A DNA stretch of 64,000 bases, taken from Phaseolus vulgaris (lineage: Eukaryota; Streptophyta; Magnoliopsida; Fabales; Fabaceae). Below, piece after piece: positions 19,226 through 52,725 of this stretch (position 1 is its first letter; the number at the start of each line of letters is the position of its first letter). The notes beneath the pieces were generated by a model. It was given only the letters and a program-made list of their open reading frames with translations. It was not told where the DNA came from and did no database searches. The stretch is from NCBI RefSeq assembly GCF_000499845.2, contig NC_023753.2, positions 8,695,791 to 8,759,790 on the forward strand, given 5' to 3'. The position numbers were made by a program, and so were the translations under genes.

Positions 19226-22200
19226 TTAAACCCATCTACCATCAATCTGTATCCCACGGACATGGCACATTTTAGCCCAAATTTCACTGTCCTTTCTGTG
19301 GCATCGTTTTTGCAGCAAGGGAGATCCCTCTATTATTAATTTTATTAGAGAGACCGGCAGCCTTTCTCCCCCGATATTCTTCAGCTTTAAGCAATAGTTA
19401 ATGCGCAATTCTTGTAGCGACGTTAGATGGAGAAGGCCCTTGCACTCCAACGTCTCCAGACTTGACAATCCACTCAGATACAGAGACGTGAGGAAGCGAG
19501 GCAGCAATCCTTCCTTTGGGAAGGAGTTGATGCCATCACATGGACCGTAGATATTGAGATAGGTAATCATGTCAATGGACATCCATGCTTGGTTCACTAG
19601 TTTCTCACAATTCTGGATCTCAACTGTTCTCAAGTTAGGTGGCATATTCCCTCCTGGAAATGACTCAATTTGTTGGCAGTTCGATATCACAAGATATTCC
19701 ATCTTTGGGAGAAGAGTAGACATCTGATCGGGCAATGCCTTCAACTTCTCACAATCATAAACATCTAACCTATTCAAATTGGGCGCAGACAATCCTTCTC
19801 CCGGGAATGATACGAAGTTGGGACAGTTCATAATACGAATAGAACTCAGTCTCTTAAACGACTCTGACCCTACGACCGAAAGAGATTCCATACTTTCACA
19901 ATTTATGATTTCAAGACTAATGAGATTTGGAAAGGTATCCAATGGAAGAGACGTTAGCCAATCACAACAATTATATATTGACAATGATTCCAGTAATTCG
20001 TGTTTGTGTTGCATCGAGAATTTCAGTTTCTTTAAATCACTGATGTTAAGAATTGTCAGCGATGCTGGGAGACAATCACCTGGAAAAGATATGGCTGACG
20101 AACAATCATTTAATGACAAGGAACGGAGGCAAGTAGGTTGGATGTTAGTCATGGCCTCCATCATGGACTCCACTATTGGGCTTCCTTCTATGCGTATATT
20201 TTCCACCAAAAGAGGAAACACATGAAACGCTACTTTGCTGCTTTTGCTTATCTCTAATCTTTGAAGGGTGGGAGCCCTTGGGATGGAAGAGACAAGAAGC
20301 TCGCAATTTCTAATCGTGAGTACTTGCAGAGCAGGAAGGTGATTTGGCAAGTCTCCCTTTAGTTTGGAACAACTTTCTATAAAAAGACTCTGAAGCACAG
20401 GAAAAGCTTCTGATTCGATTGAACTCCACACCTCCCAACAAGGCATATCATCAATGCGTAGAGATTGAAGGGAGGGAAAGGGCGTCACAGATGAACAATC
20501 TTCCTTCTTATAAAATCCTGCATCAATAGTCTTCACAGAATTCATGTTTGAAATTTGGAGGCTCTTGAGAGATGGTAGTTGCCCAAGTGAAGGAAGTGTG
20601 CAACAGTTGTTACAATCTTTTAAAAACAGATGTGTTATATTTTGATAGGAAACATTCTCAACCCATTCAGGAAATCTGGTTCCTTTATAACCTCTGATTG
20701 ACAGCGATTTCAGGTCTTGGTGAGGGTGTAAGTTTCTGAGTACATCTAATTCAATTTCGAAGTCGATGTCATTGTCTTTACCCATAGACCATTCCAAGAT
20801 TAGATGATTAATGTGCTTCTTATCCATTATCCTGGCCTCTAATGCTTCTTCACTTTTGGTAACATTCTCCAATTTCTTAATAGAAAAATCACCGTGGAGA
20901 TTTGAAAGTCCTCCTACTTCTTTGATGCTATTCTCTTTATGTTTGCCCACAATATAGACATCCAACTTCTGTAATTGATTTAGTTTCCCCATTCTTTTAG
21001 GCATCCCTTTTATGGATGTTCGAAGAATTTCAAGATGACGCAAGTTTACGAGATTTTGTATGGCACTAGGCAACTTAGTCAGATTCAAGCAAGAATACAA
21101 CTTCAAAGTTTGTAGATTATGCAAATTGCACAATGACTCCGGCAGTGCTTCAATACTTGTATAAGAGATATTTAAATAACGCAAATGGATCAGTTCACCA
21201 ATTGAATCAAGCAGAGGAAGCTTACTTTGGAACCTACAAAATGATAAAACTCTCAAGTACTTCAGCATCGACACTATAATAAGTGGTGCCTTTTTATTGT
21301 TGAATGGAGAATCTTTATAATTGATCAGCAAGAAAGTTCTTGGAAACTTTACTGTTTCGAAAACTTCAATATCCGAGACTGGATCACTGAATCTTGTAAA
21401 AGACAAATGACGAGTCTTTCTATCAATTCTGGTTTCTTTTCCAAGGTCATCTGCTCTAAAATAGAATTCCCCGCCAATGAATGTTGCTAGATCATGCATC
21501 AAGTCATGCATTACAAAACGATTTCCCCATATTTGATTACTTTGAAAAAACGATCGGGAAACCAAATCATCGAAATACTCCTGACCAACTTCTTCTAAAG
21601 TCTTTCCTTTTTTTGGTGCTTTTACAAGATCTTCAGCCATCCACAGCTGGATCAGTTCATCTTTGTGCAATTCATAATCCTTGGGATACAGTGAGCAATA
21701 TACAAAACACCGTTTTAAATTTGGAGGGAGATAATTATAACTAATTCTGAGTGCTGGAATAATTTTACACTGACTTTCAGGAAGTTCCCAAATTTCACTT
21801 TCAAGTACATTATTCCAATCCCTAATAGCGTGCTTTCTTCTCAACATTCCTCCAAGTGACTGTGCAGCTAAAGGCAACCCATTACACTTTTTAACAATTT
21901 CCTTTCCAATCTTTTCTAGAGTTCCTCTATTCTCACTGCCTTCTGAGAGAGGAAAAGCATGGTTTGCAAACACCAACCAACAATCTTCATTTGACAATTT
22001 GTTTAATTGATATACTTTAACAGTTTGAAAAGGAACTACAGCCGCAACATTTTCATTGCGGGTTGTCACCAGAACCTTACTTCCCCTAATCCCACCTAGA
22101 AATGGTTTTGTAAGACTACTCCAAGTGTCAGAATCCTCTATCCAAACATCATCCAATACAATCACGAATCTTTTACCTTTCAGTTTTTCCATCAAGTAAA

Positions 22201-22963
22201 GTTGAAGGGCATTTAGATCACTCAATTTACAAGGCTTCTGGGTAATTTCCTCTATCATAGTTTTTGTGACCTTCACAATATCAAAGATATCAGAAACACA
22301 AACCCATGCCTTTAAATCAAAATTCTGCTGCTTCAATTTGCCATCGTTGAACACAGATCTTGCCAAAGTGGTTTTTCCAACCCCACCCATGCCTACAATA
22401 GGGATCACGGACACCTCTTCATCATCACTGGTATCCTCTAACACCAACTTCATTATGACCTCCTTATCTTTATCTCTGCCATACATAACATATCTATCTT
22501 CCAGAGATGTTGGCTGAGCTTTCCATGACTGGTTGCTCTCCACTGGAATCTCCTTCAAATCAAGACACTCCTTTTGTTTTAAAATGTCATCTAATCTTTC
22601 AACTAAGTCTTCCAACTTACTAATACTAACAATCTTCTTCCTCTTGAAAAGGCCAGAAAAGGAATCGCTTACCTCCTTTTGAGTAGCAGCTTTAGTAGAG
22701 ACTTCATCAACTAAGTCGTCAACCTCGTAGACAACATCTCTGAGAACATCGAGCCACTTTTTGACATTGGAGTCTGAGATTTGTCGATTCTCAGCATCAG
22801 CAAGCACAACTCTAACCACTATCAGCTGGTTCTCCACCTTTCGTAGCAACTTGTCAGGCTTCTTTCCACGGATGAAGTTGAGAAGCTCAGGGGAAGCTAG
22901 CCTTTCAAAAAGAACGTCAAGGAAAGCAGAGAGAAGTGCACCACCTACCACGGCTAAAGCCAT
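19226..22963 (-). CDS. CC-NBS-LRR disease-resistance protein (RPP13-like 1 / R13L type)
   Basis: A single uninterrupted frame of 1245 residues, full length for a coiled-coil NLR. The N-terminal Rx-type coiled coil (about 1-130) includes WLDVLRDVVYEVDDLVDE, the position of the EDVID-like motif. NB-ARC motifs are P-loop GMGGVGKTT (191-199), kinase-2 VIVLDDVW (267-274), RNBS-B KVLVTTR (296-302), GLPLAA (362-367), CFVYCSLYP (419-427) and MHD (485-487). From about residue 560 to the end there are many leucine-rich repeats of the LxxLxxLxL type, expected to set recognition specificity. The Asp after kinase-2 Asp and the following Trp are typical of the CNL class. Such proteins are cytoplasmic or nuclear immune receptors that trigger cell death on sensing a pathogen effector. 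All key motifs are intact. A possible 3'-UTR splice donor (CAGGTAATT) lies just after the stop. The pathogen recognised cannot be inferred. Confidence 0.95.
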   Translation of the reverse strand: MALAVVGGALLSAFLDVLFERLASPELLNFIRGKKPDKLLRKVENQLIVVRVVLADAENRQISDSNVKKWLDVLRDVVYEVDDLVDEVSTKAATQKEVSDSFSGLFKRKKIVSISKLEDLVERLDDILKQKECLDLKEIPVESNQSWKAQPTSLEDRYVMYGRDKDKEVIMKLVLEDTSDDEEVSVIPIVGMGGVGKTTLARSVFNDGKLKQQNFDLKAWVCVSDIFDIVKVTKTMIEEITQKPCKLSDLNALQLYLMEKLKGKRFVIVLDDVWIEDSDTWSSLTKPFLGGIRGSKVLVTTRNENVAAVVPFQTVKVYQLNKLSNEDCWLVFANHAFPLSEGSENRGTLEKIGKEIVKKCNGLPLAAQSLGGMLRRKHAIRDWNNVLESEIWELPESQCKIIPALRISYNYLPPNLKRCFVYCSLYPKDYELHKDELIQLWMAEDLVKAPKKGKTLEEVGQEYFDDLVSRSFFQSNQIWGNRFVMHDLMHDLATFIGGEFYFRADDLGKETRIDRKTRHLSFTRFSDPVSDIEVFETVKFPRTFLLINYKDSPFNNKKAPLIIVSMLKYLRVLSFCRFQSKLPLLDSIGELIHLRYLNISYTSIEALPESLCNLHNLQTLKLYSCLNLTKLPSAIQNLVNLRHLEILRTSIKGMPKRMGKLNQLQKLDVYIVGKHKENSIKEVGGLSNLHGDFSIKKLENVTKSEEALEARIMDKKHINHLILEWSMGKDNDIDFEIELDVLRNLHPHQDLKSLSIRGYKGTRFPEWVENVSYQNITHLFLKDCNNCCTLPSLGQLPSLKSLQISNMNSVKTIDAGFYKKEDCSSVTPFPSLQSLRIDDMPCWEVWSSIESEAFPVLQSLFIESCSKLKGDLPNHLPALQVLTIRNCELLVSSIPRAPTLQRLEISKSSKVAFHVFPLLVENIRIEGSPIVESMMEAMTNIQPTCLRSLSLNDCSSAISFPGDCLPASLTILNISDLKKLKFSMQHKHELLESLSIYNCCDWLTSLPLDTFPNLISLEIINCESMESLSVVGSESFKRLSSIRIMNCPNFVSFPGEGLSAPNLNRLDVYDCEKLKALPDQMSTLLPKMEYLVISNCQQIESFPGGNMPPNLRTVEIQNCEKLVNQAWMSIDMITYLNIYGPCDGINSFPKEGLLPRFLTSLYLSGLSSLETLECKGLLHLTSLQELRINYCLKLKNIGGERLPVSLIKLIIEGSPLLQKRCHRKDSEIWAKMCHVRGIQIDGRWV

Positions 22964-24184: not shown

Positions 24185-27100
24185 CACTAGGAATTTAACT
24201 ACCAATTATTTAGTTTCTAAATTTAGTCTCTAAAACTTTGGTTGATAATTAGATACCAATTTAGAAACTATTTAACAATAATAGAAACTAATTTAGAAAC
24301 CTATTACAAAATAGAACAGAAATGAACAAAAGAGAACAGAGATAAACAAAAGAGTAAACTGAAGACAAAGGATATGAGAATGAATATATCTTCTTTCTTG
24401 TTATTCAAATCAAAACACAAATGGTCTGAATATATACAAGTAGTACACTCATTCTAGGTTTAACTAAAGAGGGAAAAAATCAATAATTAAATACTAGAAT
24501 CATAACACACACAGGACAAAATAAAGGTTATTCACCTCTATAAAGAAAAACAACTGATAATTAGAAAAGACACTCAATTAATATTAGGATCCTTCTGTAA
24601 CTTTGGTATCTGTATCCTTTAATACCCCGCCACAAGCTGGGAAGCAAATATTGATGAGACCCAGCTTGGAACAAATATTCTTAAAAGATTGAGGACTTAA
24701 AGTTTTTGTATAAATATCAACCAGTTGCTCTATGGTGGAAATGAGAAGCAAATGGATGAGACCCTTCTTTAATTTTTCCCGGACCACGCGACAATCTATT
24801 TCTATAAGTTTTGTACGCTCGTGAAACACTGGATTTGCTACAATGTATCTTGCTGAGTCATTGCCACAGTATAAAAAAGATGGTTGCTCAAAAGGAACTT
24901 TGAAATCTTATAGAAGATAAGTTAGCCATTGAATTTCACATGTAACAGTGGTCATTGCCCTGTATTCAGCTTCACAAGAACTCTTTGATATTGTTCCTTG
25001 CTTCTTTGATTTCCAAGATATGAGAGAATTCCCAAGATACACACTAAAACCAGTCACTGATTGTCTTGAATCACAACAGGTGCCCCAATCACTATCACAA
25101 AAGGCTTTCAGATGAACAGAGGTAGTGGAAGAGAAAAATAGACCAAGACTTGGAGCCCCTTTGATATATCTGAGAATTTTAATCGCTGCATTATAGTGAG
25201 CAATTGTAGGCTTAGCAAGAAATTGAGAAAGTTGTTGCACAGAAAATGTTATGTCAGGTCGGGTATTAGTGAGATACATAAGTCTTCCAATCAATCAATC
25301 TTCTGTAGGCTTGAATATCTGTGAAAGGAACGTAGAAGAGAATTTCTCATGATTGTCGATAGGAGTGGGAGCAGGTTTGCAGGCTAAAAGACCTGCATGT
25401 GTTAATAATTCCAATGCATATTTCCTTTGATTTACCATTATTCATGTCTTACTTCTTGCTACTTCTAGACCAAGAAAATATCTTAAATTTCCAAGATCTT
25501 TAATCTTGAATGTCTGATTCAAGGCTTGTTTGATTCGAGCAATCTCTTCTTTATCATTTCCTGTCAATATTATATCATCCACATATACCAATAATGTTGT
25601 AAAAGATCCTTCAAAAGAATTAATGAACAAGGAATGATCATTCATAGATTGAGTATATCCCATAGAAAGCAAAAATGATGACAGTTTGGCAAACCATTCT
25701 CTGCTAGCTTGCTTAAGACCATATAAAGCCTTTTTTAGTTTACAAACTTTTCCTGGTGGAATAGAAGTCAATCCAGGAGGAGCAACCATGTATACATCTT
25801 CTTTCAAATCTCCATGTAAAAAGGCATTGTTTATGTCTAATTGTTTCAATTCCCAATTATAAATAGAAGCTAAAGAAAGAAGCAACCTTATGGTGGTCAT
25901 CTTTGCTACTGGAGAGAAAGTATCAAGGTAGTCAATGCCTTCTGTTTGTGTATATCCCTTTGCCACTAACCTTGCTTTATACCTTTCAATTGTCCCATCA
26001 ACCCTATATTTTATTTTGAATACCCATTTGCAACCTATGGCAGCTTTGTTCTTAGGCAGAAGAGCAGTCTCCCAAGTTTGATTTGACTCTAAAGCAGATA
26101 TCTCACATTGTATAGCTTTTCTCCAACAGTCATGTTTCACAGCTTTAGAATAAGTGTTTGGCTCAACATGTGAAGAAAGAGACATAACAAAAGATTTGTA
26201 AGAAGGTGATAAATTGCTATAAGACAAAACAAAATTCAAAGGATATTTAACTCTTGAAGATGTACTGAAAACGTTAAGATTACAATGATAATCCTTTAAA
26301 TACTCGGGTGATCTTTTTATTCTTGTGCTCATTCGGACAGATGGATCTGATTCAAAACTTTGTTCTATATCATGATTTTCATTGAGGTTTTGGTCTATAT
26401 GGGAACAATCTACATCTGAAACCTCAATTTGTGACTCACAATTATTATTACTGTTATTTTCAACATTATCACAAGGTGTATTATCACAAGGTGCAAGAAT
26501 GACTTGTGATGGCTGACTTAAGATAGATTGATCTTCAGCAAACAAAATTTGATCATCAATATCGGGGCTGTTAGTTTCATTACTAGTATCTTGAACCCTT
26601 TGGTATGGAAAAACATGTTCATAAAAGACAACATCCCTAGACACAAAAATTTCTCTTGATCGAATATTCAACAAAAATATATCCTTTTGTCCACCTTGGA
26701 CAACCAATAAAAATACATTTTGATGTTATTGGATCAAATTTTCTTCTATTTGTTGACAAAGTGCTAGCATAACATAAAGAACCAAACACTTTTAATCCAT
26801 TAAAATCTGCATCAGTTTTGAAAAGCATTTCATGAGGGGAAGAATATGTTAAAACAGGTGTGGGAAGCATGTTTATAATATGCGCAGCATGTATCACAAA
26901 ATATGACCAATAAATTTTGGGTAAATGAGATTGTATCATAAGAGCTCTTGCTACATCTAATAAATGACCATGTTTCCTTTCAACTATACTATTTTGTTGT
27001 GGAGTATTGACACATGATGTTTGATGTATTATTCCTTTACTGACAAAAAAATTAGTCATGACAAACTCAGTTCCATTATCACTTCTTATTATTTTTATTG

Positions 27101-28271
27101 TTGTCTCAAACTCTGTTTGAACAAAAATAACAAAGTGTTCCAAAACCTTAACAACTTCAGATTTTTGTTTCAAAAGAAAAATCCATGTGTACCTCGAATA
27201 GTCATCAACTATGGTCAAGAAATATTTATGGTCATGAATTGATGGTATTGAGTATGGTCCCCAAATATCTACATGAATCAAATCAAAACATTTTTTCGAT
27301 TTAGATGTACTAATAGGAAAAGAAAGTTTTTTTTGCTTTGCAAAATGACAAACATCACAAACAAAAGATTTGTTATATTTAACAAAAGGAAATTTATTCT
27401 TGATAACATCAATACATTTATTTGAAATATGACCTAATCGAAAATGCCAAAGGGTTTCTAGATCACTAGCACTGGCATTAACAGTATTGATGATGTGTGT
27501 AGATTCAAGGGGTTTAATTTGAAATTTCTGGTAAGATGGGATCCTGAGTATATAAAGTCTATCTTGCATCTTAGCATAACCAATTATTTTCAAGGAGTTT
27601 TTGTCTTGAATGTGACAACCATTAGAATCAAAGGTAAGAACACAAGATAGTCTATCAACCAATTTTGTTACTGAAAGAAGATTAAAAGTGAAGCAAAGAA
27701 TATACAAAACATTGTTTATGACATGATTTTGATTGAGAAAAACACTTCCAAAATAATTGGCAATGACTTGATTTCCATTTGGTAATTTGACATAAATAGG
27801 ATCAATTTGATGATACGAAGTGAAGTAAGTTAAGGATGAACAAATGTGATCAGTAGCACCACTATCAATAATCCAAGAACTAGAAGAAAAAATAGAGTTA
27901 TTACTAGTTTGTGTTGTCATGTTGGAAGGAATAACAGAGACTTGACTTTAAACATTGTCACTGGATTTGACCTGTTGTAAAAGAGCTAACAATATTTGAT
28001 ACTGCTCAGGAGTAAAACCAATTTGTTGAGACTCCACTTCTGACTTTGAACCTTCATGATTATGCTCATTATTGTTAAAATTTGTATTATGAAAGGTTGC
28101 ATGACTTTGATGATGGTTTTGATTTTTAAATTTGAAATAAGGTGGAAAATCATGTTTTTTATAGCATGATTCTGCTTTTAGTTTTCAAAATGGTCTCTAA
28201 TTTAGTTACTATTGCAACTAATTATTTTGATCTCTAAAAATTGGTTTCTATTTCATGATTTTCTTGTAGTG
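24185..28271. mobile_element. CACTA-type element arms enclosing a copia fragment
   Basis: The left arm (about 24193-24306) and the right arm (about 28184-28271, ending TTTCTATTTCATGATTTTCTTGTAGTG) match the two halves of the CACTA-type element at 39386-39791. In that copy the phrases ACTAATTTAGAAACC and TAGTTTCTAAAATGGTCTC are a few bases apart. Here they are separated by about 3.9 kb of copia sequence. The left arm has lost its outer part. The outer boundaries are approximate. Confidence 0.65.
24306..28183 (-). mobile_element. Broken Ty1/copia retrotransposon, truncated at the 5' side
   Basis: Gene order on the minus strand is end of gag, protease, integrase, reverse transcriptase, RNase H, which is copia order. 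Visible motifs are protease DSGATDH (about 27860), the pre-integrase H...CDVC finger, integrase DIWGPY and RSDNGTE, reverse transcriptase GCKWVFKIKY and LLVYVDDIIL (near 25580), and RNase H DSDWGTC and SSCEAEYRA. The frame is interrupted at about 26640-26700 (frame change), near 25440, between 24907 and 24830, and by a stop in the gag part at about 27950, so it cannot encode a working polyprotein. A purine-rich tract (GGCGGGG) followed by TATTAAAGG at 24624 suggests a 3' LTR (24624 to about 24306). No 5' LTR, primer-binding site or most of gag is present; sequence stops inside gag at 28183. Confidence 0.85.
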
Positions 28272-29614: not shown

Positions 29615-32348
29615 ATGAAAATGTTGTGCAGCAAGAATATTTTCCTCCAAATTCTGTGGTGTTTTTCCTTGATCACTCTTAGTTCCCAAACACAGAATCA
29701 TTACAGTTTTGTTGTGAGTCCCATCACATAATATTTCATTTCCAAACATGGTGAAATGTTATATGCGCCATGCCGTTCATGAATATACTTTTCTTTCTTT
29801 TGTTTAGTTTTCCTTTCTTGAAGTTTATATGACAGATATAATAATAATAACTTGGATAGTGGCCTGAGGCGCGTAACAGTATATTATTGAGTATCTTTGA
29901 TACATAAAAAGTACAGGGATAATATTTTTTTTAACAAATGCATCATTTTTTTATAAATTTATCATAAAATATATTCATGAGTATTTTAGTAAAAGTTTGG
30001 TTAATTTTTGAAGCACGGGAAATTAAATAATTTGATTAATCTTGCAGGTTAGAGAAGCTCAGTATACAAGACTTTGTTCAACAAAAAGTATATTGACTGT
30101 GAATGGAAACTTTCCAGGACCAACTATCAGAGTCAACAGAGGAGACACAATCTACGTTGATGTTTACAACGAGGGCAACTACAATATTACTATACACTGG
30201 TATTCAGTTTTCTATCTTAAGCAATTAACCTATGAATGAATGAAAATGAACCAAAGCCTGATTAATATAAGTGATTTATGGACAGGCATGGAGTGAAGCA
30301 GCCAAGGAATCCATGGACAGATGGCCCATCATACATCACTCAGTGCCCCATCCAACCTGGAAGAAAATTCAGACAAAAGTTGGTTTTTTCTTTCGAGGAA
30401 GGGACCATATGGTGGCATGCTCATAGTGAATGGATAAGAGCCACTGTCTATGGTGCTATCTATGTTTATCCAACAAAGAATACTCCCTACCCCTTTCCTC
30501 AACCCGATGCTGAGATTCCCATCATTTTTGGTATGAAAAAGTCCCTTAAAATTTTGTTCTCTGCCTCCTTGTTGTGATTCACCGAAGATAGAGTGTTTGA
30601 CAGAGTGGAGAATTTTTACTCTTTATTATCAAAATGTGTTGTTTTTTAAACTTGGGAAAGTCATAATAACGGACATGATTTCATTATGAAAAAGTTGTGA
30701 CCAAACCGGGACTTTAGTTTGAATTGATTATAATGAAGAATCTCATTTTAACCTATTTTAGTTGAAGCGTAAAAATTCTCCCAATTTCGTCAAAAGACCC
30801 CAAATATAGCTAGAACATTATTGATAAAAGCACGAGTAAAAATGCAACGTTTTATTTATTTATGGATATGCAGGAGAGTGGTGGATGAATGATGTCAACG
30901 AGGTCTTCAGACAGTCTTTTGAAACTGGAGGAGCTCCAAACATATCTGATGCTCTCACTATAAATGGTCAACCCGGGGATCTCTTCCCTTGCTCAATGCC
31001 AGGTCTGCATCAATGTTTAAACTTTATGAAGTTAATGATCAATCTAAATATTTTACATTCAACTAATTGCTATATTCTAATTAGATTCATGGTTTCAACT
31101 TTCAACTATAACTACCTTTCTTTCTTCAAAACATTTGTCTCTTTGAGGTTAAGCTCTAAACGCCACACTCTCTTTTAATTTTCAGAAACGTTCAAGTTAA
31201 ATGTAGAACAAGGAAGGACTTATCATCTCCGAGTTATTAACGCCGCAATGAATCTCATTCTCTTCTTCTCGGTTTCCCAACATAACCTCACTGTTGTTGG
31301 TGCTGATGCTGTTTACACCAAGCCATTCACAAGGGATTACATTTGCATATCACCCGGCCAAGCAATGGATGTGTTGTTGCATGCCAACCAAGAACCTAAT
31401 CATTATTATCTAGCTGCAAGGGCATACTCAACTGGTGTTGGTGTTGCCTTTGATAACACCACAACCACTGCTAGAATAGAGTACAGTGGCAATTATACTC
31501 CACCTTCATCTCCTTCATTACCAAACCTCCCCAACTTTAATGATACACAAGCAGCTTTGGATTTCATTACAAATTTGAGAGGCTTACCTGAGAGATACCC
31601 CAATCCAGTCCCAACAAACATCACCACTCAAATAGTGACCACTATTTCTGTCAACACTTTGCCATGCCCTAATGGCAGAAACGACTGCCAGGGACCAAAT
31701 GGAACCCTTTTCTCTGCTAGCATGAACAACATAAGTTTTCAAACCCCCAACATTGACATTCTAAAAGCCTACTATAACAATATCAATGGGGTATACGAAA
31801 CGGGATTTCCCAGATTCCCACCTTTTATGTTCAACTTCACTGCAGACTTTTTGCCTCTAACATTGAATATACCACAGAAAGGGACTAGGGTTAATGTGCT
31901 GAACTATGGTTCAACAGTTGAAATTGTGTTCCAAGGGACAAACGTTGTTGGAGGGGTAGACCATCCTATCCATCTCCATGGGTTCAGTTTCCATGTTATT
32001 GGATATGGATTAGGCAATTTTAACCAAAGTACAGATCCCATGAATTTCAATCTCGTTGATCCTCCATACTTGAACACTGTGATTGTGCCAATAAATGGCT
32101 GGGCTGCCATTCGATTCGTGGCTGTGAATCCTGGTATGTAACACGAAATGCGAGTTTATATTTAACTCTTGTTTTCAATTTTTAAATGGAGAGCTTATTT
32201 AATATTTTCAATTGCAGGAGTATGGTTTATGCACTGCCATCTTGAACGGCACCAATCTTGGGGCATGCAGACAGTTTTTATTGTGAAGAATGGAAACTCT
32301 TCGAAACAAATATTGCCACCGCCGCCGCCAGACATGCCTCCATGCTGA
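29615..32348 (+). CDS. Laccase 1 (secreted multicopper oxidase, LAC14-like)
   Basis: Six exons: 29615-29713, 30048-30199, 30286-30530, 30874-31002, 31186-32133, 32218-32348. All introns are GT-AG and the 1704 bp join in frame to 567 residues. The first exon encodes a signal peptide ([15 protein letters not shown]). The four copper-binding regions are present: HWHG at the exon 2/3 junction, WWHAHSEW in exon 3, [14 protein letters not shown] in exon 5, and [12 protein letters not shown] in exon 6, with the trinuclear histidines, the type-1 Cys-His pair and axial Met. The protein ends DMPPC, as plant laccases do. The enzyme should oxidise phenolics such as monolignols or flavonoids in the cell wall using O2. 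The LAC14-like placement is from general resemblance and is uncertain. It pairs tail-to-tail with laccase 2. Confidence 0.92.
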
Positions 32349-35751: not shown

Positions 35752-38286
35752 TCAACATGGGGGCATGTCTGGTGGTGGTGCTGGTAATGTTTCATTTGAA
35801 GCCTTTCCATTCTTCACAATAAACACTGTCTCCATGCCCCAAGCTTGGTGGCGTTCTAGATGGCAGTGCATGAACCATACTCCTGTAATTTAAAGGGCAC
35901 ATGCAGTTCATGCAACAAAAGTAAGTATCCACTGATAAAATTAAAAATGGAAACTAAGAATTATATATAAACACACAAACAAAAGTAGTGTCCCATGCCA
36001 CATACCAGGGTTGCTAGCCACAAACCTAACAGCAGCCCAGCCATTTACAGGCACAATCACCGTATTCAAATAAGGAGGATCAATGAGATTGAAATTCATG
36101 GGGTCCTTGCTTTGGTTGAAATTGCCTAACCCATATCCAACGACATGGAAACTGAACCCATGGAGATGCATGGGATGGTCTATCCCTGCAACAACGTTTG
36201 TTCCTTGGAATACAATTTCAACCGTTGCACCATAGTTCAGCACGTTAACCCTGGTCCCTTGCTTTGGTATATTCAATGTTAAAGGCAAAAAGTCTGCAGT
36301 GAAGTTAAACATAAAGGGAGGGAATCTGGGAAATCCCGTTTGGTATACCCCATTGATATGATAGTAATAGGCTTCTAGTATGTTAATGTTGGGGGTGTCA
36401 AAACTTATGTTGTTCATGCTAGCAGCAAAAATGGTTCCATTTGGTCCCTGGCAGGTTCTGTCATCAGGGCATGGCAAAGTGTTAACAGAAATAGTGGTCA
36501 CTATTTGAGTTGTGGTGTTTGTTGGGACCTGGCGAGGGTATCTCTCAGGTAAGCCTCTCAAGCGTGTAATGAAGTCAAAAGCTGCGCCTGTGTCATTAAA
36601 GTTGGGAAGGTAAGGTAGTGAAAGAGATGAAGGTGGAGTGTAGTTTCCACTGTATTCCACTCTAGCAGTGGTTGTGGTGTTATCAAAAGCAACACCAACC
36701 CCACTAGAATATGCCCTTGCCGCCAGATAATAATGATTAGGTTCTTCATTGGCTTGCAACAATACATCCATTGTTTGTCCGGGTGATATGCAAATGTAAT
36801 CCCTTGTCAATGGCTTGGTGAACAAGCCATCGGCACCAACAACAGTGAGATTGTGCTGGGAAACAGAAAAGAACAGAATGAGATTCATTGCCGCGTTAAC
36901 AACACGGAGATGGTAAGTCATGCCTTGCTCTACTTTTAGCTTGAACGTTTCTGCAAATTAAAAGAAAGTATGGCGTTTAAAGCCTAACCTCAAAGATACA
37001 AATATTTGAAAGAAGAAATAGTTGACACTACCTGTCATGGAGCAAGGGAAGAGATCCCCGGGTTGACCATTTATAGTGAGAGCATCAGATATATTTGGAG
37101 CTCCTCCAGTTTCAATAGACTGAGTGAAGACCTCATTGACATCAGTATTCCACCATTCTCCTGCATATGAATGAATAAGTATATATTTGTTACATTTTCA
37201 ACCATTTTCTATCAATATGTTCTAGAAATCAAAAGGAGGTAGAACAATCTTTTCATACCAAATATAATTGGAATCTCTGCATGAGGTTGGGGAAAAGGGT
37301 AGGGAGTATTCTTGGTTGGATAAACAAAGATAGCCCCATGGACAGTGGCTCTTGCCCAGTCACTATGAGCATGCCACCATATAGTCCCTTCTTCGGAAGA
37401 AAAAACCAACTTTTGTCTGAATTTTCTTCCAGGTTGGATGGGGCACTGAGTAATGTATGCAGGACCATCTGTCCATGGATTCCTTGGTTGTTTCACTCCA
37501 TGCCTGTCCATAAATCAGTTACAGTTAGCTATGCATTTGATTAAAAGTTTCATCCATTGTGCTGTTTTCCATAGGTCATAAAAATGGTTAAGATTGGAAA
37601 TTCAATACCAGTGTAAAGTGATATTGTAGTTGCCCTTGTTATAAACATTAACAAAGATTGTTTCTCCTCTGTGGACTCTGATAGTTGGTCCTGGAAAATT
37701 TCCATTCACAGTCAATACGCTTTTTGTGGAACACAGTCTTGTGTACTGGGCCTCTCTCACCTGCAAGTTAATCAAACTCATTAGTTAATAGTGGTTTAAC
37801 AATTTGTTGGTTATTTATTAAGATTTATTTGTGAATAAATATGTGCTCAATGTATAAATATTCCAAATTATAAATTTTAAAAAATGCAATAACACCCCCA
37901 TGAAAAAAAAATGTTATGCCTAAATAAATTGTACAATAAAAAAATAAAAATATATTATTAGCATAATTTTTAAAGGTAAAAAATATATTCTATAATTAGA
38001 AAATTGTGCATTACATGTATTATTTATTAAAAATATTCACCATTTCTTTTAACTCATTAATCATCTATTTATGTTATTAATTATCATATAGTTATTTAAT
38101 TATCAAAGTATTATTTTCAAAAATATAACAGCACTTCACCAATTTCTGCAACAGTAATAGGAAATTATAGGATGTAACTGTACTCACAACAAAACTGTAA
38201 GGACTCCGTGTTTGGGAACTAAGATCTATGAAGGAGAAACACCACAGAACTTGGAGGAACAGTTTCTTGCCAAAAGACATTTTCAT
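35752..38286 (-). CDS. Laccase 2 (secreted multicopper oxidase, LAC14-like)
   Basis: Six exons on the minus strand: 38286-38188, 37760-37609, 37503-37259, 37160-37032, 36950-36006, 35882-35752. The lengths 99/152/245/129/945/131 equal those of laccase 1 except for one codon less in exon 5, giving 566 residues. Features are signal peptide [53 protein letters not shown] and the terminal DMPPC. All copper ligands are intact. The role should match laccase 1: cell-wall or vacuolar oxidation of phenolics. The first exon start overlaps the duplicated promoter unit described separately. Being convergent with laccase 1, the pair arose by inverted duplication, or by tandem duplication followed by inversion. 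Confidence 0.92.
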
Positions 38287-48203: not shown

Positions 48204-48650
48204 ATGTCTCAAACAGAGAATCCAATGGAAAATCTTCCGGCATTGATTTACAAAAACCCCATTAGGAGAAGTTCTAGACGATCTACAATGTATCTTGGCG
48301 TGAGAAAAAGGCCATGGGGAAGATATGCTGCTGAGATTAGAAACCCTTATACCAAAGAGAGACACTGGCTAGGCACATTTGACACTGCTGAAGAAGCTGC
48401 TATTGCCTATGATCTTTCATCTATCAAGATTTGTGGCATTAATGCTCGAACTAATTTTCATTACCCTTTTGTGTCTCTTCCACCACCTCCTATGGCGTTG
48501 CCTCCTCCACCGCTACCACCTACCCAGGAGTTGGATCAAAGTGTCGGAGTTTGTCCAGAGATGAATGCTGCTTTCGATGGCGATGATGAATCTCTGGTTA
48601 TTGCTTCCATTTTGCAAAGCTTTTCTAGCTCTGGTAACTGCTCTTTTTAG
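48204..48650 (+). CDS. AP2/ERF transcription factor, LEP/ERF086-090-like
   Basis: A single-exon gene of 148 residues with one AP2 domain at residues about 30-87 ([19 protein letters not shown] ... [16 protein letters not shown]). The Ala and Asp at the B-group (ERF) positions indicate binding to GCC-box-like DNA in the nucleus. An Arg-rich stretch (RRSSRRS, 21-27) before the domain could serve for nuclear import. The region after the domain is proline-rich ([14 protein letters not shown]), and the C-terminus ends in the short motif [14 protein letters not shown], possibly a functional tail. The turn to the last helix, [17 protein letters not shown], departs from the usual YDRAARSLRGxxARTNF. 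The small size and RYAAEIR...[16 protein letters not shown] resemble the LEAFY PETIOLE group, but orthology is unproved. The start at 48204 was chosen as the first ATG; 48225 is an alternative. Confidence 0.88.
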
Positions 48651-51951: not shown

Positions 51952-52725
51952 TTAATCATGCTGAGGGCCAGATCCGTGGCTAACTGTAGACCTTCTACCA
52001 CTCCTTGCTATTAAACTCGTACTCTGCACAACGTATTTTAAGATTTTGGTCACTGATACAAAAAATTAATGGGGTTTGTGTTTTGGATTATCACTAGTAT
52101 ACTAATGTTTTCATGCTCCTTGTCTTCATCTATCTACTAGACACAGTGCCACAACTGGCTTCAGTTCTGGTGGAGTGGTAATGCCCAATATTGATGATAA
52201 AAATCATTTTATATGCAAAATAGTTTTTGGTTTCACAGGAAACAAAAGTAAGGTTTTGTCTATATGGTTCCAAACAACATTATCTTTAAAAAGGGAAACT
52301 GAAAATGTTGAACAAGTGTTTCATAATCTTCAAAGCAAAACGGTCCACTCCTATATATGATCTATATAAAAGTATTGTGTACTATGTACATGGAACTGGT
52401 TCTTGTTTTGGTGATAAAAACACAAACACATGTATTTAGAGAGAGAGAGACATACAATGGTGCGATCTGTCACGGATGGTGGACCTGCAGCACCTAGCGA
52501 GGTTGTGTGAGTGTTGGTTGGAGAGCTTATAGTAGGATCTGCAGCAGCATGAGTTTGTGGCAGTGAGCTTCTCTCTTGTTTTGCCTCTGAAGACATTGAG
52601 GTTCCAGACTCAATACCTAGACACCTCAAAAGGGTCCTCAGTGCTTCTTGAAGAAAATGGCATGGATGGTACACATAGAATGTGGCTGTTCTCTCTTCTT
52701 CATGCCATGGTGATGATTCTTCCAT
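51952..52725 (-). CDS. Plant elicitor peptide precursor (PROPEP)
   Basis: Two exons on the minus strand: 52725-52456 (90 codons) and 52023-51952 (23 codons plus TAA), with a 432-bp GT-AG intron in phase 0. The product is 113 residues. The N-terminal part has the conserved amphipathic helix FLQEALRTLLRCLG (24-37) after an aromatic YVYHP segment, as in known PROPEPs, which have no signal peptide and stay in the cytosol or at the tonoplast. The middle is Ser/Thr-rich and poorly conserved. Exon 2 encodes the C-terminal peptide STSLIARSGRRSTVSHGSGPQHD minus nothing; its core SHGSGPQH matches the legume Pep consensus as I recall it. In this family metacaspases cut the precursor after damage and the freed ~23-residue peptide binds PEPR receptor kinases at the surface to start immune signalling. 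The odd point is the last residue, Asp, where Asn is the rule. Arg88, three residues before the exon junction, is a plausible cleavage site (inference). Confidence 0.85.

What the first reader, a model, noticed from the sequence alone, without database searches (positions are those of the whole stretch)
51952..52725. Hidden two-exon plant elicitor peptide precursor with an Asp terminus
Seen: exon 1 (90 codons) carries the amphipathic FLQEALRTLLRCLG helix; a 23-codon second exon after a clean GT-AG intron supplies the C-terminal SGRRSTVSHGSGPQHD and a stop. Known: Pep peptides of plants are released from the C-terminus of PROPEPs, and their last residue, nearly always Asn, contacts the PEPR receptor. 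Here it is Asp. Either this copy has altered receptor affinity, or it is a natural antagonist or decaying paralogue, or the receptor in this lineage tolerates Asp. Ordinary ORF calling would miss exon 2, the functional part.
Basis: partly seen in the sequence, partly recalled or inferred. Interest (0 to 1): 0.82.

Follow-up and report, generated by a model that had tools for sequence, protein, structure and literature searches.

The report
Common bean's wound-signal peptide gene PvPROPEP1
This is an ordinary, already annotated common bean gene for a plant defence peptide (PvPep1) that has already been synthesised and used in published work; its one oddity is a last amino acid, aspartate, where its relatives have asparagine.

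Summary
The observation and gene model are right. The spliced 113-aa protein is identical to the public Phaseolus vulgaris model PHAVU_007G086700, matches Pfam Pep1_7 (42.9 bits, cut-off 26.2), and shares its intron position and SHGSGPQH-type tail with soybean. So it is a PROPEP, but not hidden: a 2026 paper names the exact 23-mer, final Asp included, PvPep1 and used it at 1 uM as an elicitor on bean leaves. That speaks against decay or antagonism. Not remarked on in what I read: in this sample the terminal Asp is confined to P. vulgaris. Of 11 legume precursors with a complete tail, 10 end in Asn, including P. coccineus of the same genus. Three PEPR-like loci of the same genome keep Tyr395, Asp441 and Arg487, positions in or near the reported Asn23 pocket, so no matching receptor change shows there. 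Most likely: a working elicitor precursor with a recent N-to-D change tolerated by the receptor at the dose used; any affinity loss is untested. Already known; modest interest.

The parts
52456..52725 (-). Exon 1 of PvPROPEP1 (codons 1-90), precursor region
   Evidence: ATG to GT donor; Pfam Pep1_7 match at residues 9-53, 42.9 bits; identical to P0001
52615..52656 (-). Conserved amphipathic segment FLQEALRTLLRCLG (residues 24-37)
   Evidence: sequence; F24, L25, A28, C35, L36, G37 invariant among the six proteins
52024..52455 (-). Intron, 432 nt, GTATGT..TGTGCAG
   Evidence: same position in soybean, from spliced models P0006/P0018 against read-through models P0009/P0015
51952..52023 (-). Exon 2: 23 codons plus TAA, encoding the peptide PvPep1 STSLIARSGRRSTVSHGSGPQHD
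   Evidence: exact 23-mer named PvPep1 in PMC13048380
51955..51957 (-). GAT codon: terminal Asp where the other 10 of 11 complete legume tails have Asn

Best explanation
PvPROPEP1 is the common bean precursor of a plant elicitor peptide. Shown here: gene structure, family membership, and homology to soybean and Phaseolus coccineus PROPEPs. Shown in print: use of the Asp-ended 23-mer as an elicitor of leaf ethylene. Inferred from the family: the precursor, which in this family has no secretion signal (PMC10421127, passage), is cut on damage to free the last ~23 residues, which bind the LRR receptor kinase PEPR with a BAK1-type co-receptor and amplify defence. The terminal Asp is a recent substitution (one A-to-G transition if the ancestral codon was AAT), arisen after the split from P. 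coccineus if that species' Asn is ancestral, and tolerated by a receptor unchanged at the pocket positions examined, at micromolar dose, perhaps with some loss of affinity.
For: Exact public gene model; Pep1_7 above cut-off; related tails in P. coccineus, soybean, Vigna and other legumes; published synthesis of the exact 23-mer and the statement that the bean response to it was unaffected by the inr-2 allele; three Pep1_7 loci above cut-off in the genome, only this one seen with a Pep tail; bean PEPR-like loci at C5, C7 and C11 keep Tyr395, Asp441 and Arg487.
Against: In AtPep1, deleting Asn23 nearly abolishes activity (PMC4526913), and PEPR1 Asp441 is reported to hydrogen-bond Asn23 (PMC6668560); an Asp ligand facing Asp441 would be expected to bind less well, and bean keeps that Asp441. 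I could not see the paper's Fig. 3B, only its text and legend. No RNA reads were available; splicing rests on annotation and homology. Only one bean genome was examined.
Confidence: 0.87

Rival explanations
1. The Asp is a damaging change: PvPep1 is a weakened ligand (or partial antagonist) and the gene is drifting.
For: The terminal Asn is critical in AtPep1; Asp441 of the receptor is reported to contact it and is unchanged in bean; the other 10 complete legume tails end in Asn; the bean tail is also two residues shorter than that of P. coccineus before SHGSG.
Against: The Asp peptide was used as a working elicitor at 1 uM; the open frame, splice sites and remaining motif are intact; His-ended ZmPep1 shows that a non-Asn end can serve in its own family (PMC4526913).
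Confidence: 0.3
2. The Asp is an allele of one line, or a sequence error, not a property of the species.
For: Only one bean assembly was examined; P0001 has a single member sequence.
Against: The paper has the same letters, but took them from the Phytozome annotation, presumably the same line, so this does not decide it.
Confidence: 0.2
3. Bean PEPR co-evolved to prefer an Asp-ended ligand.
For: PROPEP-PEPR co-evolution between plant families is described (PMC4526913, abstract start, passages).
Against: Tyr395, Asp441 and Arg487 are unchanged in the three bean PEPR-like loci and in 10 of 10 further PEPR-like proteins picked for alignment; other pocket residues were not examined.
Confidence: 0.08
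4. Chance ORF, no gene.
For: None found.
Against: Family score, related proteins, conserved intron position, public model.
Confidence: 0.01

Closest known systems
PvPep1 / Phvul.007G086700 (PHAVU_007G086700), PMC13048380
   Same: The very gene and the very 23-mer, terminal Asp included.
   Different: Nothing; the passages and sections I read do not comment on the Asp.
Soybean PROPEPs on chromosomes 20 and 10 (P0006, P0018)
   Same: Same splice junction, same helix region, tails SRISHGSGPQHN and SKISDGSGPQHN.
   Different: End in Asn.
Phaseolus coccineus VNO80_16420 (P0002)
   Same: 84% identical protein in the same genus.
   Different: Tail STISHGSGPHHN: Asn end, and two more residues before SHGSG.
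Arabidopsis AtPep1 with PEPR1 (PDB 5gr8)
   Same: Family archetype; SxG motif and C-terminal ~23-mer.
   Different: Ends in Asn23; deleting it loses activity.
Maize ZmPep1
   Same: Another Pep that departs from terminal Asn (His; PMC4526913).
   Different: Grass family, different residue.

Membership tests
PROPEP / Pep (Pfam PF17232 Pep1_7) | Precursor matches the Pep1_7 profile above its cut-off | tested here: met
   42.9 bits against 26.2; 42 bits in the genome search
PROPEP / Pep (Pfam PF17232 Pep1_7) | C-terminal ~23-residue peptide with SxG motif | tested here: met
   ...STVSHGSGPQHD, SHG at positions 15-17 of the 23-mer
PROPEP / Pep (Pfam PF17232 Pep1_7) | Terminal Asn (SxGxxxxxN, strict in the eight AtPeps) | tested here: not met
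   Asp in bean. The rule defines the Arabidopsis set, not the whole family: ZmPep1 ends in His, so membership is not lost
PROPEP / Pep (Pfam PF17232 Pep1_7) | Homology to other PROPEPs with shared intron position | tested here: met
PROPEP / Pep (Pfam PF17232 Pep1_7) | Peptide elicits an immune output in its own species | not testable with these tools
   Reported in print: text of PMC13048380; the figure was not seen
PROPEP / Pep (Pfam PF17232 Pep1_7) | Perception through PEPR | not testable with these tools
   PEPR-like loci exist in the genome; binding not tested

The most novel reading that the evidence does not exclude
Common bean is a natural exception to the Asn23 rule: an Asp-ended Pep is a full agonist of a PEPR whose Asn-reading residues (Asp441, Arg487) are unchanged, which would mean that the contact of the Asn side chain with Asp441 is dispensable and that the free C-terminal carboxylate with Arg487 does the work.
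Probability: 0.3. Interest if true: 0.45.

Novelty: already known. Interest (0 to 1): 0.27.

Why it matters
The gene itself is known. The use of the case is as a clean natural variant: two species of one genus differ at the one ligand residue held to be essential, while the receptor positions examined in bean are the usual ones, so a two-peptide dose experiment would test the structural model of Pep perception. Users of PvPep1 as a standard elicitor may also wish to know that it departs from the Asn end of its relatives.

Tried and rejected
Chance ORF: rejected. Further Pep tails in the window: none found by motif scan. Tail-bearing paralogue in the bean genome: the 23-mer finds only itself at E up to 10; soybean P0006 finds the window gene's two exons plus C2 and C9; Pep1_7 gives 11 matches, 3 above cut-off. 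The two others above cut-off (C9, C2) look like last exons that stop about 20 residues after the helix. A loose tail pattern over 9.5 kb at each gave no hit at C2 and 5 at C9 (one of them downstream on the gene's strand); none looked Pep-like by eye, nor did the frames within 3.5 kb downstream. The 8 matches below cut-off (L012-L019, about 3.1 kb each) gave no PROPEP-like exon and one loose tail hit (L016) that I judged not Pep-like. AtPep1 letters against PDB chains: no hit. The crystal-structure paper (PMC4650589) is not held, so pocket contacts are taken from passages of two other papers. Bacterial-type promoter scan upstream: not informative for a plant gene; one W-box-like and one G-box site in 1.5 kb upstream, not tested against chance. 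tRNA and Rfam scans of the window: none. Literature searches; only (and again 81) listed the PvPep1 paper. PMC9718524 had none of the Pep terms sought.

Rows dropped before counts. Of the 42 proteins, read, 18 end in intron read-through or a truncated or run-on model (one of them, P0003, is the window itself), 1 (P0042) is not a PROPEP though it met my tail pattern, 12 are precursors from outside the Fabaceae (P0029-P0034, P0036-P0041; their last letter is N in all 12, in P0038-P0040 outside the usual motif); 11 legume tails remain (P0001, P0002, P0006, P0011, P0014, P0016-P0019, P0023, P0024), of which P0023 (..GSPPQTN) did not meet the pattern and was added by eye. In one search, 10 PEPR-like proteins were picked by hand from the 120 listed of 2108; five are legume proteins from four species, two of them near-duplicates from Vicia villosa. 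In one search, 3 of the 6 receptor loci gave residues; L023 was scanned only on the strand opposite to its match and gave no frame, L024 and L025 were not examined; a second segment of L022 (L022_1) read R/Y/R, and I set it aside as LRR repeats aligned out of register (33% identity).

Full report
What is there. On the minus strand, 52725..52456 is a 90-codon first exon and 52023..51952 a 23-codon second exon with TAA, parted by a 432-nt GT-AG intron. Reading through the intron gives a stop after 124 residues. The spliced product has 113 residues and ends SGRRSTVSHGSGPQHD. The window is G000:C7:8695791-8759790 of a 537.7-Mb assembly; the best protein match is the identical Phaseolus vulgaris protein PHAVU_007G086700. 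That this is the bean reference line is an inference: the longest contig listed for P0001 is 40.0 Mb, and I recall that size for chromosome 7 of the reference.

Family. Pfam Pep1_7 matches residues 9-53 with 42.9 bits against a cut-off of 26.2; the match does not cover the tail. The tail is judged by relatives: P. coccineus ...STISHGSGPHHN, soybean ...SRISHGSGPQHN and ...SKISDGSGPQHN, Vigna angularis and V. radiata ...SPITHGPGPQHN, and others. Spliced and read-through soybean models share exon 1 up to NQTI and then part (P0006 against P0009, P0018 against P0015, apart from differences within exon 1), which puts the soybean junction where the bean one is (RTI/STS). A motif scan of the window finds the Pep-type tail once, against 2 hits in all in 60 Markov replicates.

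Already in print. PMC13048380 (PLoS One 2026; abstract and outline, section 7, section 11, passages, the second part of the reference list; figures not seen) says that PvPep1, STSLIARSGRRSTVSHGSGPQHD, was synthesised from Phvul.007G086700 and applied at 1 uM to bean leaves for ethylene, and that the response to it was not affected by the inr-2 allele in near-isogenic lines with G19833 as recurrent parent. This is the exact peptide of the finding. It served as a comparison elicitor there; the text read does not discuss the terminal Asp or an Asn version.

The Asp. Of the 42 proteins found with the four-sequence profile, 11 are legume precursors with a complete tail (rows dropped are told under Tried and rejected): 10 end in Asn, only the bean one in Asp. 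P. coccineus, of the same genus, has Asn, so the change most likely arose on the P. vulgaris line; the codon is GAT, one transition from AAT (the P. coccineus codon itself was not available). In AtPep1, deletion of Asn23 nearly abolishes activity (PMC4526913, passages, section 15). A review reports that Asn23 and the C-terminal carboxyl bond an arginine in LRR 18 and that deleting the Asn loses binding (PMC6749341, passages); a modelling paper reports that Asp441 bonds Asn23 and Tyr395 bonds Gln21 (PMC6668560, passages). That the LRR 18 arginine is Arg487 is from recall. On that model an Asp ligand should bind less well, unless the carboxylate-arginine contact dominates.

The receptor. Searching the genome with a Vicia PEPR-like protein gives 43 matches; the best three, at 59-68% identity, are at C5 (uninterrupted), C7 and C11 (stop codons inside the match, where introns are not excluded); the rest lie at 34-42%. 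These three keep Tyr395, Asp441 and Arg487, as do 10 of 10 PEPR-like proteins picked from other plants, five of them from legumes. So bean shows no compensating change at these three positions; other pocket residues were not compared, and expression or function of the three loci was not tested.

Paralogues. Pep1_7 gives 11 matches in the genome, 3 above cut-off: this gene, C9:21077079 and C2:43584417. The latter two look like last exons carrying an HPC..F..A..FLKC helix and stopping without a Pep tail. Within these limits this is the only Pep1_7-recognised bean gene seen with a Pep tail; a divergent PROPEP below detection is not excluded. A lone gene whose peptide works as an elicitor is a poor candidate for a decaying duplicate.

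Mechanism. Shown: gene, family, homology, and (in print) use as an elicitor. Inferred from the family: damage-triggered cleavage to the 23-mer, binding to PEPR with a BAK1-type co-receptor, amplification of ethylene, ROS and Ca2+ signals. Open: relative potency of Asp and Asn ends, whether the Asp is fixed in the species, and the mature C-terminus in the plant.

Verdict. Observation confirmed; interpretation partly supported; gene and peptide already known; the residual point, an Asp end read by a pocket unchanged at the positions examined, is a small, testable structure-activity question.

Noticed in passing
L008/L010 (C9:21077079-21077204 +) and L007/L011 (C2:43584417-43584566 -): Two bean loci match Pfam Pep1_7 above cut-off but look like last exons that end shortly after an HPC..F..A..FLKC helix, with no Pep tail found: a PROPEP-like precursor domain without the peptide. 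A weaker match with a stop lies about 4 kb further on C9 (L013, below cut-off).
   Followed up: partly
L020 (C5:40814251 +), L021 (C7:21607819 +), L022 (C11:47050857 +): Three PEPR-like receptor loci in bean, two with stop codons inside the match (introns not excluded; [quoted passage not shown]
   Followed up: partly
window 19226-22963 (-): Uninterrupted 1245-aa Rx_N/NB-ARC/LRR disease-resistance-type gene.
   Followed up: no
window 24908-27920 (-): Copia-type retrotransposon pieces: integrase core and gag pre-integrase by Pfam on 26637-27920; neighbouring frames look reverse-transcriptase-like by eye only.
   Followed up: no
window 31248-32141 (+) and 35941-36921 (-): Two similar multicopper oxidase gene pieces in opposite orientation.
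   Followed up: no
window 48204-48650 (+): Small AP2-domain gene about 3.3 kb from the PROPEP.
   Followed up: no
C7, PROPEP at about 8.75 Mb: The inceptin receptor locus INR of the PvPep1 paper lies at Chr07 7.41 Mb, about 1.3 Mb away if C7 is that chromosome in the same coordinates; lines introgressed for inr-2 may carry the donor's PvPROPEP1 allele too.
   Followed up: no
PMC4526913, introduction: The passages seen print 'asp23' three times where asparagine 23 is meant, which could mislead a reader about Asp-ended Peps.
   Followed up: no
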